Shown one piece after another: positions 58,568-64,000 of a DNA stretch of 64,000 nucleotides (position 1 is the first letter of the stretch; every line of letters starts with the position of its first letter). The stretch comes from Lentzea atacamensis. Lineage in GTDB: Bacteria; Actinomycetota; Actinomycetes; Mycobacteriales; Pseudonocardiaceae. The notes beneath the pieces are model-generated. The model saw only the letters and a list, made by a program, of their open reading frames with translations. It was not told where the DNA came from and did no database searches. Where the stretch lies: contig NZ_QLTT01000008.1 in NCBI RefSeq assembly GCF_003269295.1, forward strand, positions 267,227 through 331,226, given 5' to 3'. Both the position numbers and the translations under genes were made by a program.

Positions 58568-58640
58568 GATCCGATGAGTCCTGGCAACGCAGGCGTGATG
58601 GAGGCTTGACCCACGTACATCCGGTTGTAATCATCGGATC
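58568..58640. promoter_or_regulatory. Separated 10-bp inverted repeat before the GH29 gene
   Basis: GATCCGATGA (58568-58577) and its exact complement TCATCGGATC (58631-58640) flank 53 bases that should hold the promoter. The near half ends 28 bases before the ATG. Two distant half sites could support a looped repressor or be one full regulatory element each. Confidence 0.5.
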
Positions 58641-58668
58641 TCTCGCCGCCGCCCCGACGAGAAAAGCG

Positions 58669-61554
58669 ATGGTCATGGCACTACGACGTTTGTGTGTGGC
58701 CGTGGTGGCCGCGCTGCTCGCTGGCCTGGTCACGGTCGCCCTGCCGGTTGCCGCGCAGGCCGAGGTACAACATCCGAGACAGGAGTGGCTGCGCAAGTCC
58801 ACCGCCGGTCTCTTCCTGCACTGGGGCATGTTCACCGCCCCGAAGCACCTGAACTGCGCCGAGTGGGAGCGCGACGTCACCGGCGGAGGGTGGACCCCCG
58901 ACTACTGGATCGACGAGGCGCGCAAGCTCGGCGCCTCCTACGTCGTGCTGGCGACGTTCCACTCACGGCTCGGCTACGCGCGGCCGTGGCCGTCGAAGAT
59001 CCCCGGCAGCTGCGCCACGCAACGCGACCTGCTCGGCGAGCTGGTCAACGCGGGCAAGGCCAAGGACGTCAAGGTCATCCTCTACATGACAGACGACCCG
59101 CAGTGGCACAGCGAGCAGGGCGTGCAGATGCTCGACTCAGCGGCCTACTCGGCGCACAAGGGCGAGACCGTCGACCTGACGACGCGCGAGGGCTTCGGCA
59201 AGTACAGCTACGACCTCTTCTTCGAGGTCATGAAGAACTACGACGACCTCGCGGGCTTCTGGATCGACAACGACAACGAGTATTGGGAGCGCAACAAGCT
59301 CTACGAGCAGATCCGGCAGCTGCGGCCCACCTGGTTGTTGAGCAACAACAACGAGGACACGCCCATCATGGACACGGTCTCGAACGAGCAGAAGACCGGC
59401 ATGTTCCCGTCCTACGACTACCCGGCGGCGACGTTCACGCCGATGCCGCGCCTGTCCGAGGCCTGCTACAAGCTGCCCAACACCGGCGACTGGTGGTACG
59501 ACGGCGGCAACCACGCCGTCGACACGCGCCTGAACACCGGCCGCTACATCACCAACGCGGGCTCCTCGATCAAGTCGCTCATGGCCGAGACGCCGATGGT
59601 GAACGGCCGCATGCCCGCGCAGCAGGAGGCGTACAACAACTTCATGTCCACCTGGGTGCCGCCGATCCGCGAGTCGATCCAGGGTGTCGAGGGCGCCGGG
59701 TACATGTACGGCGGCATGCAGCCGGGGTTCTGGAACGACGGCGCGCACGGCGTGATCACCATCAACCCGGCCACGGGCAAGCAGTACGTGCACGTGGTGA
59801 CGCGGCCGCGTGCCGACTTCGTCCGCCTGCGGGACAACGGGTACCGGGTCACCGGTGTGAAGGACCTGCGGACGGGTGAGCGGATGCGGTTCTCGCAGTC
59901 CGCCGGGCACCTGACGATCGAGGGCATCACGAAGTGGGACGAGTACGACACCGTGTTCGCGGTGGAAACCAGTGGCCGGCAAGGGTTCCACACCGGCGTC
60001 AAGGCGTTCGCGACGTCCTCCAAGGACGGTTTCCCGGCATCGAACCTGACCGATGGCAGCTTCGAGAAGTACTGGGACGCAGGCGCGGCTCAGCCCGTTT
60101 CGATCTCGCTGGACCTGGGACGGCGCAAGGAGGCCTCGTTCCTCGCGATCAACCAGCGCGAATCGTCCCCCACGCACGCCCGCGTGTCGTTCGGCCGGCC
60201 GGAGGACTCGTCGCGAATCAAGGACTACCAGCTGACGGCTTCTGACGACGGCCGCAACTGGTGGCACGTCCGCAGTGGCGCACTGCCCTCCGCGCGCGGC
60301 ACGCAGTTCATCGACATCGGCTCGACGAACGCTCGCTGGCTGCGCCTGACGGTGCTGGGCACGTGGGGCGGGCCGCAGGCACCGGTCTACTTCAAGGAAC
60401 TCAAGATCGACGAGATCCGCGTCGGCCACAGCTACCCGCGGTCTCTCTCCGGCGGTGCGCTGGAGGCCGAGAACGCGTCGCGGTCCGGTGCGGTGCGCGT
60501 TGAGCCCTGCGAGGCCTGTTCGGGCGCGCGTCAGGTGACCGGGCTCGGCGGCGGAGAGCGCAACGCCGTGACCTATCGCGATGTTTCCGTTGCGACGGCC
60601 GGTACCTACAACCTGCAGCTGTCGTTGACGTCTGCCGCCGCTTCGTCCGTCTCGGTGTCGGTGAACGGTGCGGCGCCGGTGGCCGTCGCGGTGCCCGCGG
60701 ATCGGTCCGACGTGCCGGACCCGACATCGATCGCCGTGCCGTTGAACGCGGGCCGCAACACGGTCCGGGTGTTCGGCACGGGCAAGGCGCTCGGCCTGGA
60801 CCGGATCTCGGTGGGCGGACTGCCGCCTTCGAACTACACGCCGAAGACGACGCTGACCGTGCAACCCCATGGCGTGCAATGGGTCGCGCCAGGCCAGCAG
60901 TCCGTGAAGATCACGGCACGGCTGCGCCTGGACGCCGACGACCAGATCGACAACGTGTCGCTGGCGCCCGTGGTTCCCGCCGGGTGGACGCTGACCGGTG
61001 CGCCCGCTGTGCGGTCGTCGATGCGGCTGGCCGGTGTGCTGGAAGGCGTCTGGACCGCCGTGTCTCCCGCCGGGCAGGACGTGGGCTCGGTCAGCATCCC
61101 GGTGACCGCGTCGTTCCAGCTGCTGGGCTCCGACCGCAGGGTGTCGGGTGCGGTGCCGGTGCGGACTCGTCCCGCGGACCGCGTGTTCGTGCGCGAGGCG
61201 GAGGACTCGGCGAACTCGTTCGGCAGCACCGGGTTGACCGGGTGCGGGGCGTGCTCGGGCGGGGAGAAGGTGCGCAACATCGGCGGCGGCCCGGACGCGT
61301 CGGTGACCTTCCCGAACATCAACGTGCCCGCGGGCACCTACAGGTTGTTCATCCAGTTCACGGTGAACGGGCCGCGGTCGTACTTCGTCTCCGTGAACGG
61401 CGGCGCGCCGGTCGAGGTCAAGCTGAACGGGGTCGGCAACAACACCCCGTACGTGGCCGGGATTCCGGTGACGCTGAACGCCGGGCCGAACACGATCAAG
61501 TTCGGCAACGACGGTGCCGGGGCGCCTGACCTCGACCAGATCGCGCTCGGCTGA
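58669..61554 (+). CDS. Large secreted GH29-like (alpha-L-fucosidase family) glycosidase
   Basis: A 961-residue exported protein. The signal peptide ends near AAQA (residue 33). A GH29-like barrel follows (LFLHWGMFTAPKHLNCAEWE, ILYMTDDPQWHSEQG, LAGFWIDNDNEYW with the likely nucleophile Asp, MFPSYDYPAATFTPMP). Then come a discoidin-type F5/8C domain (FPASNLTDGSFEKYWDAG, VYFKELKIDEIR), a CBM6/35-like module (LEAENASRSGAVRVEPCEAC), a NEW3-like Ig domain and a second CBM6/35-like module (FVREAEDSANSFGSTG). The usual HHDGF motif is missing, so the substrate may differ from fucose. The ATG at 58669 is chosen as the start of the signal peptide; another lies two codons later. Confidence 0.85.
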   Translation: MVMALRRLCVAVVAALLAGLVTVALPVAAQAEVQHPRQEWLRKSTAGLFLHWGMFTAPKHLNCAEWERDVTGGGWTPDYWIDEARKLGASYVVLATFHSRLGYARPWPSKIPGSCATQRDLLGELVNAGKAKDVKVILYMTDDPQWHSEQGVQMLDSAAYSAHKGETVDLTTREGFGKYSYDLFFEVMKNYDDLAGFWIDNDNEYWERNKLYEQIRQLRPTWLLSNNNEDTPIMDTVSNEQKTGMFPSYDYPAATFTPMPRLSEACYKLPNTGDWWYDGGNHAVDTRLNTGRYITNAGSSIKSLMAETPMVNGRMPAQQEAYNNFMSTWVPPIRESIQGVEGAGYMYGGMQPGFWNDGAHGVITINPATGKQYVHVVTRPRADFVRLRDNGYRVTGVKDLRTGERMRFSQSAGHLTIEGITKWDEYDTVFAVETSGRQGFHTGVKAFATSSKDGFPASNLTDGSFEKYWDAGAAQPVSISLDLGRRKEASFLAINQRESSPTHARVSFGRPEDSSRIKDYQLTASDDGRNWWHVRSGALPSARGTQFIDIGSTNARWLRLTVLGTWGGPQAPVYFKELKIDEIRVGHSYPRSLSGGALEAENASRSGAVRVEPCEACSGARQVTGLGGGERNAVTYRDVSVATAGTYNLQLSLTSAAASSVSVSVNGAAPVAVAVPADRSDVPDPTSIAVPLNAGRNTVRVFGTGKALGLDRISVGGLPPSNYTPKTTLTVQPHGVQWVAPGQQSVKITARLRLDADDQIDNVSLAPVVPAGWTLTGAPAVRSSMRLAGVLEGVWTAVSPAGQDVGSVSIPVTASFQLLGSDRRVSGAVPVRTRPADRVFVREAEDSANSFGSTGLTGCGACSGGEKVRNIGGGPDASVTFPNINVPAGTYRLFIQFTVNGPRSYFVSVNGGAPVEVKLNGVGNNTPYVAGIPVTLNAGPNTIKFGNDGAGAPDLDQIALG

Positions 61555-61563
61555 TCCTCCTGC

Positions 61564-61597
61564 GCACGGCACCCCGCCACTCGGTAGGGTGCCGTGC
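61564..61597 (+). terminator. Hairpin between the GH29 gene and the ankyrin array
   Basis: GCACGGCACCC pairs perfectly with GGGTGCCGTGC (11 bp, 12-base loop). It begins 9 bases after the GH29 stop and ends 2 bases before the next ATG, taking in the only possible ribosome site (GTAGGG). It can end the GH29 transcript and also mask the start of the array in read-through RNA. No T run follows. Confidence 0.65.
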
Positions 61598-61599
61598 TC

Positions 61600-62550
61600 A
61601 TGGGGGCGGAACACGAGGGATGGCAAGGTTTCCAGCACACCGGGTGGGACAGTCTGGAAGCGGTGCGCGAACGGCTCGACGCCGGGGCCGACCCGAACGT
61701 CGGCTGGTACTGGATGCCACCGCTGCACGACGCGGCCGAGAACGGCACGCCCGAGGTGGTGGCCGAGCTGGCCGCCCGCGTCGACGACGTCGACGTGCTC
61801 GTGGACGGCCGCTCGGCGCTGTGGCGGGCGGTGCACGCCGGCAAGCCCGGCAACGCCCAGGCGCTGCTGGACGCTGGCGCGGATCCGGTGCGCCCCATGA
61901 TGTCCGGCTGGTCGCCTGCCCGGCTGAGCCTGGTGACCGGGAACGTCATCCCGTCCGGCGAGGTGCTCACCGAGCAGGAGCGGGCGTTGATCGCCGATCG
62001 CGACCGGATGATCGCCGCGATCGGCGACTTCCCGGAGTACGACGGTTTCAGCATCGCCTGCGTCGGCGGGATCGACGCGGCGGAGGCGACCCGCAGGCTG
62101 AATGCGTACGTCGTGCCGGACGACGAGCTGCCGGACCTCGGCGACTGGTACGAGGAGCCGTTCGAGGACGACACCGAGCTGGCCATGGGCGTGACGGACG
62201 TGCCGGGCGGCTGCGTCGTGGTCCAGCCCTGGTACTTCAACGCGTCCAGCACGGACGTGATGCGCCGGCTGTCCGCGGGCACGGTCGCGTACGGCATGTA
62301 CGCGAACCCCAAGAGCGGCGACCAGGGCAGCAGCCACCGCGACGGCGAGATCGTCGGATGGGACCTGCATCCGGGAGGTGCTCCCGCGGAGGACGACGGC
62401 ACGCTCGGGGTGCTGCTGGCACACCTGTACGACGGTGAGGCCGTTGCCCACTGCTGCGCCTATGCGGGGCTGCGGCCGGTGGACAACAAGGCGTTCACGG
62501 AACCGGATCGGTGGCTGCTGCTGCCCGACATCGAGTTCTGGCGCTCGTGA
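61600..62550 (+). CDS. Ankyrin-repeat protein with DUF6461-like C-terminus (copy 1)
   Basis: A 316-residue cytoplasmic protein. Residues 5-100 carry three ankyrin-type repeats (DSLEAVRERLDAGADPNVGW, MPPLHDAAENGTPEVVAELA, SALWRAVHAGKPGNAQALLD, then AGADP). A fixed linker, PMMSGWSPARLSLVTGNVIP, joins them to a 180-residue C-terminal domain (FSIACVGGIDAAEATRRLNA, RLSAGTVAYGMYANPKSGDQ, DRWLLLPDIEFWRS). That domain resembles the actinobacterial DUF6461 pattern at a distance. Function is unknown; ankyrin repeats imply protein binding. The next copy starts inside its stop. Confidence 0.85.
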   Translation: MGAEHEGWQGFQHTGWDSLEAVRERLDAGADPNVGWYWMPPLHDAAENGTPEVVAELAARVDDVDVLVDGRSALWRAVHAGKPGNAQALLDAGADPVRPMMSGWSPARLSLVTGNVIPSGEVLTEQERALIADRDRMIAAIGDFPEYDGFSIACVGGIDAAEATRRLNAYVVPDDELPDLGDWYEEPFEDDTELAMGVTDVPGGCVVVQPWYFNASSTDVMRRLSAGTVAYGMYANPKSGDQGSSHRDGEIVGWDLHPGGAPAEDDGTLGVLLAHLYDGEAVAHCCAYAGLRPVDNKAFTEPDRWLLLPDIEFWRS

Positions 62551-63503
62551 TGGAGAGCGAGGGCTGGCGCGGCTTTCCGAGCACCGGCTGGCAGAGCGTG
62601 GACGCCGTGCGGCGCCGGCTCGACGCGGGCGCGGACCCGAACACCGGTCCGTTCTGGATGACGCCGCTGCGCTCGGCGGTCGAGTTCGGCACGGCTGAGG
62701 TGGTGGCGGAGGTGGCCGCGCGCGTCGACGACGTCGATCAGCTCGACGACGGCCGGAGCGCGCTGTGGCAGGCCGTGTACGAGGGCAAGGCCGACATCGC
62801 GCGGGCGTTGCTGGCCGCGGGGGCGGATCCGTCGCGGCCGATGATGTCCGGCTGGTCGCCCGCCCGGCTGAGCCTGGTGACCGGGAACGTCATCCCGTCC
62901 GGCGAGGTGCTGACCGACGAGGAGGAGCGGGCGGTCCGCGAGTGCGGCAGGCTCACCCTCGCCCTGAAGGGGTTCCGGCACTACGACGGCTACAGCATCG
63001 CGTGCGTCGCCGGTATCGACGCCGAGGAGGCGACGCGCAGGCTGAACGCGACAGTGGTGCCCACGGCCGAGGTCCCACCCGAGGTTCCGGCAGGGGACTG
63101 GTGGCCCGCTCCGTTCGGCGAGGACACCGAGCGCGCCCTCAGCGTCACGGACGTTCCCGGCGGGTGTGTTCTGGTGCAGCCCTGGTACTTCAACGCTCAG
63201 ACGCCGGTGGTGATGAAACTGCTGTCGGCGGGGACGGTCGCGTACGGCATGTACGCGAACCCCAAGAGCGGCAACCAGGGCAACATCCATCGCGACGGCC
63301 AGACCGTCGGGCGGGACCTGCATCCCGGAGGCGGCCCGGGCGAGCGGGACAGCACCTTCGAGGTGCTCCTGGCGCATCTCTACGCACACAAAGCCGTCGC
63401 CTACTGCTGTGCCTACGTGGGCCTGAGGCCGAAGAACGACAAGGCGTTCACCGATCCGGATCGGTGGCTGCTTCTGCCCGACATCGACTTCTGGCGCTCA
63501 TGA
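62550..63503 (+). CDS. Ankyrin-repeat protein with DUF6461-like C-terminus (copy 2)
   Basis: The 317-residue tandem paralogue of copy 1 has the same plan: SEGWRGFPSTGWQSVDAVRR, ankyrin repeats, the identical linker PMMSGWSPARLSLVTGNVIP, and the C-terminal domain ending in RWLLLPDIDFWRS. Most changes from copy 1 are in the outer faces of the ankyrin repeats and in a short Pro-rich insert (EVPPEVPAGDW). The ATG shares its A with the stop of copy 1 (TGATG), and copy 3 starts in its own stop (ATGA), so the copies are made from one message. Confidence 0.88.
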   Translation: MESEGWRGFPSTGWQSVDAVRRRLDAGADPNTGPFWMTPLRSAVEFGTAEVVAEVAARVDDVDQLDDGRSALWQAVYEGKADIARALLAAGADPSRPMMSGWSPARLSLVTGNVIPSGEVLTDEEERAVRECGRLTLALKGFRHYDGYSIACVAGIDAEEATRRLNATVVPTAEVPPEVPAGDWWPAPFGEDTERALSVTDVPGGCVLVQPWYFNAQTPVVMKLLSAGTVAYGMYANPKSGNQGNIHRDGQTVGRDLHPGGGPGERDSTFEVLLAHLYAHKAVAYCCAYVGLRPKNDKAFTDPDRWLLLPDIDFWRS

Positions 63504-64000
63504 CGGACGGCTGGCGCGGTTTTCCGAGCACCGGCTGGCAGAGCGCGAACGCCGTGCGGCGCAGGCTCGACGCGGGCGCCGACCCGGACGGCGGCGTCCA
63601 CGGGACGACGCCGCTGCACCTGGCGGTGGAGCACGGCACGGCGGAGGCGGTCGAGGAACTGGCTGCCCGCGCCCGGCACGTCGACGCGATCAACCGCGGC
63701 CGGACGCCGTTGTGGCAGGCCGTGCAGGAGGGCAAGCCCGGCCTCGCTCGGGTGTTGCTGGCGGCGGGCGCCGATCCGTCGCGGCCGATGATGTCCGGCT
63801 GGTCGCCCGCCCGGTTGAGCCTGGCGACGGACCACGTCATCCCGTCCGGCGAGGTGCTGAACGAGCAGGAACAGGCGGCGGTCGATGTGCGCGACGGCCT
63901 CCTCGCGGCGGAGGAAGGGTTTCCGCACTACGACAACTACACCGTCGTGTGTGTGGCGGACATCGACGCGGCCGAGGCGATCCGCAGGCTGAACGCCGCT
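63500..64000 (+). CDS. Ankyrin-repeat protein (copy 3), cut by the right edge
   Basis: The first 167 residues of a third paralogue. It opens MTDGWRGFPSTGWQSANAVR and has the same repeats and linker (PMMSGWSPARLSLATDHVIP). It continues into the C-terminal domain (YTVVCVADIDAAEAIRRLNA) as the window ends. A typical ankyrin TPLHLAVEHGTAE motif is clearer here than in the other copies. The ATG overlaps the stop of copy 2. The array may continue beyond the window. Confidence 0.85.
   Translation, partial: MTDGWRGFPSTGWQSANAVRRRLDAGADPDGGVHGTTPLHLAVEHGTAEAVEELAARARHVDAINRGRTPLWQAVQEGKPGLARVLLAAGADPSRPMMSGWSPARLSLATDHVIPSGEVLNEQEQAAVDVRDGLLAAEEGFPHYDNYTVVCVADIDAAEAIRRLNAA

What the first reader, a model, noticed from the sequence alone, without database searches (positions are those of the whole stretch)
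61600..64000. Tandem, translationally coupled ankyrin/DUF6461-like paralogue array
Three copies follow head to tail with TGATG and ATGA overlaps. The linker PMMSGWSPARLSL is strictly kept, while the ankyrin repeats differ between copies. Variable binding surfaces on a constant C-terminal domain resemble polymorphic immunity or adaptor families. No toxin gene is visible inside the window and the array runs past its edge.
Basis: partly seen in the sequence, partly recalled or inferred. Interest (0 to 1): 0.7.

Follow-up and report, generated by a model that had tools for sequence, protein, structure and literature searches.

The report
Recombining tandem ankyrin–DUF6461 gene trio
Three back-to-back copies of a gene for an uncharacterised soil-bacterium protein (ankyrin repeats joined to a little-known domain) sit at a spot where related species carry none, one or two copies, which looks like a local history of duplication, mixing and loss rather than a visible toxin-defence system.

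Summary
Three intact + strand genes overlap as TGATG and ATGA: c1 61600-62550, c2 62550-63503, c3 63500-64456. c3 ends 456 bases past the window; the array stops there, before an MpaB/Lcp oxygenase gene. All have ankyrin repeats. The C-terminal domain is DUF6461-related: these copies miss Pfam's cut-off, but ankyrin-less relatives from the same slot pass it.

The 'variable ankyrin, constant C-terminus' reading fails: 38 of 81 ankyrin and 93 of 193 C-terminal columns vary among the copies (p = 0.89); only the 26-residue linker is spared, and single-copy relatives keep it too.

In 24 Lentzea genomes the slot before MpaB holds three copies (this genome), two (1), one (15) or none (7). The copies are not each other's closest relatives (AU p = 0.008), and single-copy genes of three species look like c2-body/c3-tail mosaics. 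I read a recombining birth-and-death locus, probably of cytosolic binding proteins. Nineteen neighbour genes tested around 39 non-Lentzea relatives each occur in at most 3, so no conserved partner was found. Polyimmunity remains a weak rival.

The parts
61564..61597 (+). GC-rich hairpin behind the alpha-L-fucosidase-like gene: arms 61564-61574 and 61587-61597 (11 pairs) around a smaller inner stem; its 3' arm overlaps the TAGGGT element
   Evidence: fold of 61550-61600: -30.4 kcal/mol, z = -4.85, 0 of 200 shuffles as good; no T run, not called as a terminator
61585..61590 (+). TAGGGT, a TANNNT (-10-like) element 9 nt before the c1 ATG; candidate promoter for a leaderless start (inferred)
   Evidence: TANNNT 6-9 nt before the chosen start in 16 of 17 Lentzea slot genes and in G382, absent in 7 other outgroup rows; the sigma-70 scan found no promoter here
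61600..62550 (+). c1: gene for a 316-aa ankyrin + DUF6461-like protein
   Evidence: open frame; Ank_2 29.3 bits against cut-off 27.3; DUF6461 12.1 bits, below cut-off 23.2
62550..63503 (+). c2: 317-aa paralogue, starts inside the c1 stop (TGATG)
   Evidence: Ank_2 31.8 bits; closest copy to the single-copy genes of L. terrae, L. flava and L. nigeriaca
63500..64000 (+). c3: 318-aa paralogue, starts inside the c2 stop (ATGA); continues past the window to position 64456
   Evidence: Ank_2 42.8 bits
61648..61890 (+). c1 ankyrin region (c1 residues 17-97); the same in c2 at 62592-62834 and in c3 at 63539-63781
61891..61968 (+). c1 linker with PMMSGWSPARLSL (c1 residues 98-123); the same in c2 at 62835-62912 and in c3 at 63782-63859
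   Evidence: 3 of 26 columns vary among the copies; motif kept in single-copy relatives
61969..62547 (+). c1 C-terminal DUF6461-like domain (c1 residues 124-316); c2 62913-63500; c3 from 63860 past the window edge
58606..61554 (+). left flank of the slot: secreted-type alpha-L-fucosidase-like gene with carbohydrate-binding modules (not part of the array)
   Evidence: PF01120 E 3.4e-14, CBM_35 E 1e-12

Best explanation
A small coupled operon of three paralogues of a two-part protein: an N-terminal ankyrin module, a fixed PMMSGWSPARLSL linker and a C-terminal domain related to DUF6461. It occupies a recombining birth-and-death slot before an MpaB/Lcp-type oxygenase gene in Lentzea. Shown: the gene anatomy; 0-3 copies at one slot; equal divergence of both domains; paralogues of separate lineages; mosaic signals near residues 289-296; no neighbour conserved across the relatives examined. 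Inferred: c1 is transcribed from the TAGGGT element as a leaderless message, and c2 and c3 are translated by stop-start coupling, so the three are made together. Inferred: each is a cytosolic binding protein whose ankyrins dock on a partner protein while the DUF6461-like domain, which occurs alone in G244 and in the second gene of G238, is the working part. The extra copies most likely are retained and re-mixed duplicates (dosage or mild specialisation), not a repertoire of variable ankyrin surfaces.
For: Three intact coupled frames. dN/dS 0.43-0.75 between copies in the ankyrin and C-terminal regions. Slot counts in 24 Lentzea genomes: 3 here, 2 in G238, 1 in 15, 0 in 7, five of these 7 with fucosidase-like gene and MpaB directly adjacent. 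One-clade tests: c1+c2+c3 rejected (p = 0.008), G238 pair rejected (p = 8e-53). Mosaic runs: terrae, flava and nigeriaca genes are c2-like then c3-like after residue 289-296 (p 0.0018, 0.0018, 0.0006); c2 is c1-like after the same place (p 0.0002, 0.0054). Ankyrin-less members at the same slot pass the DUF6461 cut-off. No neighbour in more than 3 of 39 outgroup loci. TANNNT before 16 of 17 Lentzea starts and no Shine-Dalgarno match in the 17.
Against: No experiment. The partner-binding role rests on what ankyrins usually do. Both structure models were too weak to use. The sigma-70 scan found no promoter. Recombination bends trees, so old array plus loss and younger duplication plus conversion are not cleanly separated; the clades were named after seeing the tree, and c1+c3 alone was not rejected (p = 0.145). 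The 11 triplet tests were not corrected for number, and several were not significant. The linker is far more conserved than the rest, so divergence is not uniform everywhere.
Confidence: 0.6

Rival explanations
1. Orphan homogeneous polyimmunity locus: each copy neutralises a different toxin delivered by competitors, the toxin gene being absent or elsewhere.
For: Layout and behaviour resemble published polyimmunity loci and recombining esaG/tipC strings: same-strand tandem paralogues, changing numbers, recombination (PMC3482391 passages; PMC9484751 abstract). Ankyrin immunity proteins (Imm-ank) are listed in PMC3482391. One of 10 opened DUF6461 plasmid loci has AbiEii next door and Imm61 three genes away; in G007 the gene lies beside phage-type tail sheath and tube genes. 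Residues 124-149 vary most between copies (21 of 26).
Against: No toxin beside the array (genes read by eye) and none consistent beside relatives: sheath and tube in 1 of 39 loci. The ankyrins are not more variable than the rest. The 124-149 stretch was picked after seeing the table and does not stand out in single-copy genes (6 of 26). No paper naming DUF6461 was found.
Confidence: 0.15
2. Plain recent tandem duplication with relaxed constraint, of no special function.
For: Equal divergence of both domains; no partner; extra copies adjacent in only 2 of the 47 family genomes with a near-full-length match.
Against: All three frames are open and dN/dS is 0.43-0.75. c1-c2 dS (0.43-0.55) is no smaller than c2-terrae dS (0.30-0.39) in the two domains, so the duplication does not look recent. 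c1-c3 as one clade is rejected.
Confidence: 0.15
3. The slot is re-seeded by horizontal transfer: different lineages of the gene arrive and replace each other next to MpaB.
For: Patchy presence (55 of 390 family genomes at E<=1e-6; 16 of 296 class genomes); relatives on actinobacterial plasmids (6 records); G382, of another genus and with other neighbours, lies inside a Lentzea lineage (96/92); the G172 protein is 80% identical to that of G571, of another family.
Against: No integrase or transposase was identified beside the Lentzea slot in the flanks read, though most flanks were only compared with the hydrolase, MpaB and abhydrolase genes. The 20 Lentzea rows plus G382 form one supported group (98/100).
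Confidence: 0.1

Closest known systems
Pfam PF20062, DUF6461 (family of unknown function)
   Same: C-terminal domain: 22 of 30 relatives match at E<=1; the ankyrin-less slot genes of G244 and G238 pass the cut-off (26.9, 27.8 bits); profile comparison E about 1e-6.
   Different: c1 scores 12.1 bits, below 23.2, and c2 and c3 do not match at E<=1; ankyrins and a fixed linker are added; own signatures VPGGC and NPKSGNQG.
Ankyrin + DUF6461 proteins of unnamed family-f5 genomes (G805, G822, G777)
   Same: Ankyrins followed by a DUF6461 domain, both over the Pfam cut-off in all three.
   Different: A long further N-terminal part with no Pfam match over cut-off, about 600 aa in all, and no adjacent second copy. 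A fourth, G848, is just under the cut-off and has no called ankyrin.
Tandem esaG and tipC T7SS immunity genes (PMC9484751, abstract read)
   Same: Strings of non-identical paralogues whose number and make-up change by recombination between them.
   Different: Those are immunity genes of known toxins in Firmicutes with conserved recombination blocks; here no toxin is known, three copies at most, and the inferred switch lies near the 3' end.
Homogeneous polyimmunity loci and Imm-ank (PMC3482391, passages read)
   Same: Same-strand tandem paralogues, number differing between relatives; ankyrins can be immunity proteins.
   Different: No toxin association shown; DUF6461 is not a family I saw named in the passages read.

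Membership tests
DUF6461 (PF20062) | Match over the curated Pfam cut-off (23.2 bits) by the window proteins themselves | tested here: not met
   c1 12.1 bits; c2 and c3 no match at E<=1
DUF6461 (PF20062) | Homology of the domain through intermediates | tested here: met
   Slot members of G244 and G238 over the cut-off, aligned over the same domain with c1-c3 at 52-54% identity to c2; hhalign E 3.1e-6 and 8.5e-7, probability 88 and 92%
Ankyrin repeat proteins | Ankyrin repeats over the Pfam cut-off | tested here: met
   Ank_2 29.3, 31.8 and 42.8 bits against 27.3
Polyimmunity locus | Tandem same-strand paralogues whose number varies between relatives | tested here: met
Polyimmunity locus | Members are immunity proteins associated with toxins | tested here: not met
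   No toxin beside the array and no recurring neighbour in 39 loci; isolated leads. Functional neutralisation was not testable
Known anti-phage systems (PADLOC) | Full-length match to a system protein | tested here: not met
   PDC-M72A (best 3.4e-7) matches only model positions 277-373 of 392 over the ankyrins; 'Ankyrin' model E 0.017-0.027
Leaderless actinobacterial gene | TANNNT just upstream of the start and no Shine-Dalgarno | tested here: met
   16 of 17 Lentzea slot genes with TANNNT, 0 of 17 with the SD patterns used
Leaderless actinobacterial gene | Transcription starts at the first codon | not testable with these tools
   Needs 5'-end RNA mapping

The most novel reading that the evidence does not exclude
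An undescribed, self-remixing array of ankyrin-DUF6461 binding proteins: the Lentzea slot keeps several old paralogue lineages, re-sorts and fuses them by recombination between tandem genes, and diversifies a short helix behind the fixed linker (residues 124-149) rather than the ankyrins, acting as an orphan protein-neutralising (immunity-like) repertoire that opens DUF6461 to study.
Probability: 0.15. Interest if true: 0.6.

Novelty: new member of a known kind. Interest (0 to 1): 0.3.

Why it matters
The full-text search found no paper naming DUF6461. This locus gives a natural series for asking what the domain does: 0, 1, 2 or 3 copies, members with and without ankyrins, and empty sites with the same flanks. 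It is also a chromosomal example, without a toxin link, of the tandem-paralogue remixing described for immunity genes. If the immunity-like reading were true it would give a function to an unnamed family; as the evidence stands it is a modest evolutionary story.

Tried and rejected
A search with a guessed back-translation of the linker found nothing (the real codons differ). Viral contigs: 13 stretches matched a pattern, none a relative. PHROGs: two unnamed families, each in 10 of 18 members, best E 4.3e-7, not pursued and possibly ankyrin matches, since some of those rows still hold ankyrins. NCBIfam: weak hits, the best MzaA at 18.9 bits against a cut-off of 800. The PDB profile search: the 60 best shown of 407 were ankyrin or designed-ankyrin chains by name or aligned to the N-terminal part. 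PF20062 was not found in the own genome at E<=0.001, where its control genomes also gave nothing, and in 4 of 246 phylum genomes. Papers: DUF6461 0; four other searches gave listings, of which two papers were used; one on leaderless genes was seen as a listing only, and the link from TANNNT to leaderless starts is otherwise recalled.

Rejected: assembly artefact (copies 61-70% identical, one contig); pseudogene array (open frames, dN/dS 0.43-0.75); membership of a PADLOC system. The first family search gave 199 of 390 genomes, but many matches cover only the ankyrins, so the count was redone with the C-terminal domain. Those searches scored only 5, 8 or 11 candidates a genome, so distant extra copies could be missed; the Lentzea slots were read directly by tblastn.

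Weak spots in the neighbour work. My simple gene caller took a wrong frame or gene at the centre of L100, L103, L104 and L105 and did not call the gene in L063, L069 and L080. Pfam names were obtained for 26 neighbour proteins only, chosen by me. One search then compared 19 neighbour genes plus the window's MpaB with 39 loci: 0 for MpaB, at most 3 for the others, and the repeats seen were mostly between genomes of one genus.
Full report
What is there. The window lies at G000:C8:267227-331226 of a 9.3 Mb genome. Its genus group includes G248, G236 and G242, whose contig lengths equal those of L. terrae, L. flava and L. nigeriaca records, so I call it Lentzea. At the right edge three + strand genes follow head to tail: c1 61600-62550, c2 62550-63503, c3 63500-64456. 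c2 starts inside c1's stop (TGATG) and c3 inside c2's (ATGA). c3 is finished 456 bases beyond the window; after 7 bases comes an MpaB/Lcp-type oxygenase gene (PF09995, E 9e-57) and then an alpha/beta hydrolase gene on the other strand. To the left lies an alpha-L-fucosidase-like gene with carbohydrate-binding modules. The genome holds no further copy at E<=0.001.

Domains. All three proteins pass the Ank_2 cut-off. For the C-terminal domain only c1 touches DUF6461, below the cut-off (12.1 against 23.2 bits). Of 30 relatives scanned, 22 match DUF6461 at E<=1, best 2.1e-6. Two relatives from the same Lentzea slot that have no ankyrins, the G244 gene and the second gene of G238, pass the cut-off with 26.9 and 27.8 bits; the G239 gene, with at most about one repeat by eye and no Pfam ankyrin match at E<=0.001, scores 22.1. 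Profile-profile comparison with five DUF6461 proteins gives probabilities of 88 and 92% and E 3.1e-6 and 8.5e-7, for single comparisons. Of four long relatives in unnamed family-f5 genomes, three carry ankyrins and DUF6461 over both cut-offs; the fourth is just under the DUF6461 cut-off and has no called ankyrin. So the DUF6461 guess is right as homology, although the window copies themselves stay below Pfam's line.

Is the ankyrin part the variable part? No. Identities c1-c2, c1-c3, c2-c3 are 0.69, 0.58, 0.65 in the ankyrins and 0.67, 0.59, 0.62 in the C-terminal domain. Among the copies 38 of 81 ankyrin and 93 of 193 C-terminal columns vary (p = 0.89), against 3 of 26 in the linker (p = 0.0003). 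In the single-copy genes of three species the ankyrins are, if anything, steadier than the C-terminal domain (9 of 81 against 42 of 187, p = 0.04). Residues 124-149 just after the linker vary most between copies (21 of 26; p = 0.0005 against the rest of the domain), but I chose that stretch after seeing the table and it does not stand out in the single-copy genes (6 of 26). The linker recurs in single-copy relatives with small changes.

The slot in relatives. All 24 Lentzea genomes have one strong MpaB match. Reading about 5-6 kb before it: three copies here, two in G238, one in 15 genomes, none in 7. Of the 7, five (G229, G233, G241, G245, G249) have the fucosidase-like gene directly followed by MpaB, about 65-100 bases apart. 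G240 has MpaB but no fucosidase-like match in the stretch. G247's MpaB is the most distant (70% identity), has neither beside it, and the genome keeps only a fragment of the ankyrin gene elsewhere. Of the 17 occupied slots, 11 have the fucosidase-like gene on the left, G234 a 58-residue piece of it, and 5 (G235, G251, G232, G237, G246) no match to it in the stretch read. The G246 gene seems frameshifted near its start, judged by eye. In 390 family genomes 55 match the C-terminal profile at E<=1e-6; by my count 47 have a near-full-length match (from position 9 or earlier to 186 or later), and adjacent copies occur in 2 of these 47, G000 and G238. In 296 class genomes 16 match and only G000 has adjacent copies.

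History. In the tree c2 groups with the genes of terrae, flava and nigeriaca (86/88), c3 lies just outside (82/74) and c1 beyond G243 and G246 (90/79); these are unstarred supports. Holding c1-c3 together is rejected (AU p = 0.008), holding the two G238 genes together is rejected strongly (p = 8e-53), and holding c1 and c3 alone together is not rejected (p = 0.145); the groups were chosen after the tree was seen. A triplet run test on nucleotides (5000 shuffles, 11 triplets, uncorrected) finds the terrae, flava and nigeriaca genes c2-like up to residues 289-296 and c3-like after (p 0.0018, 0.0018, 0.0006), and c2 like terrae or flava up to the same place and like c1 after (p 0.0002, 0.0054). 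Other triplets: c3 between terrae and c2, p 0.014-0.021; c2 between c1 and c3, about 0.06; c2 between terrae and c3, c3-like run p 0.14; c3 between c2 and c1 and both c1 triplets not significant. The simplest reading is an older array whose members are lost, fused and partly converted, but duplication followed by conversion is not excluded, because recombination bends trees. dN/dS between copies is 0.43-0.75 in the two domains, so all three seem to be kept. Transfer between genera also occurs: G382, of another genus and with a subtilase gene and an FAD-oxidoreductase gene as neighbours, nests in a Lentzea lineage (96/92), and relatives lie on plasmid-collection records of Embleya, Streptomyces, Kitasatospora and Streptosporangium.

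Expression. A TANNNT hexamer stands 6-9 bases before the start of the first gene in 16 of 17 Lentzea slots, and none of the 17 has the Shine-Dalgarno patterns used; G382 also has the hexamer and 7 other outgroup rows lack it. The element overlaps the 3' arm of an 11-pair hairpin (z = -4.85; the terrae site -5.05; an empty site -1.48). The scan called neither a sigma-70 promoter nor a terminator there. From recalled knowledge of actinobacterial leaderless genes I infer a leaderless start for c1 with c2 and c3 dependent on it; this was not tested.

Partners. Neighbours were called around 15 outgroup and plasmid loci and 12 more. Pfam names for 26 of them are mixed: permease, rhomboid, beta-lactamase-like, integrase, Sir2, aminotransferase, transketolase, subtilase, amidase, helicase, methyltransferase, transposase and others. 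Two deserve notice. In G007 the gene lies divergently beside phage-type tail sheath and tail tube genes, parts of a prophage or a contractile injection system. In G100 a gene with an HTH and a NACHT domain lies 6 bases upstream on the same strand. Comparing 19 neighbour genes with 39 loci, sheath and tube occur in 1, the HTH-NACHT gene in 2 (G100 and G096, one genus) and none in more than 3; the window's MpaB gene occurs in 0 of the 39. Ten DUF6461 plasmid loci opened of 15 found have unrelated neighbours; one has AbiEii next door and Imm61 three genes away, one a Fic gene three genes downstream, and one ankyrin relative a Fic gene three genes upstream and a methyltransferase next door. No CD-NTase was named among the proteins scanned, but most neighbours were not scanned. 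Polyimmunity (PMC3482391, passages; PMC9484751, abstract) is therefore an analogy in layout and recombination, not a demonstrated membership.

Verdict. A real, intact, coupled gene trio in a recombining slot, with an uncharacterised ankyrin-DUF6461 architecture. The repertoire reading is not supported by where the differences lie or by neighbours. Interest is modest, raised a little by the clean copy-number series and the open function of DUF6461.

Noticed in passing
window 61564-61600: The -10-like TAGGGT element before c1 overlaps the 3' arm of a strong hairpin that follows the upstream gene, so one short stretch may both end one transcript and start the next.
   Followed up: partly
L056 (G246), start of the slot gene: The conserved N-terminus is in another frame from the rest of the protein: a likely frameshift, a sign of decay in one relative (by eye).
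   Followed up: no
L061:5866-8674 (G007): The single ankyrin-DUF6461-like gene lies divergently beside phage-type tail sheath and tail tube genes; not repeated in 38 other loci.
   Followed up: partly
L062:5208-8402 (G100) and L124 (G096): An HTH + NACHT gene lies 6 bases upstream of the ankyrin gene on the same strand in G100; a relative 89% identical lies close before the gene in G096.
   Followed up: partly
L090, L091, L093 (and L092), unnamed family-f5 genomes: A larger protein of about 560-675 residues adds a long N-terminal part without a Pfam name, beginning MGFFD, before ankyrins and DUF6461.
   Followed up: no
L001:6713-8069 (beyond the window): Two neighbouring + strand frames with repeated D.D.DG-type motifs look like one broken gene (by eye).
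   Followed up: no
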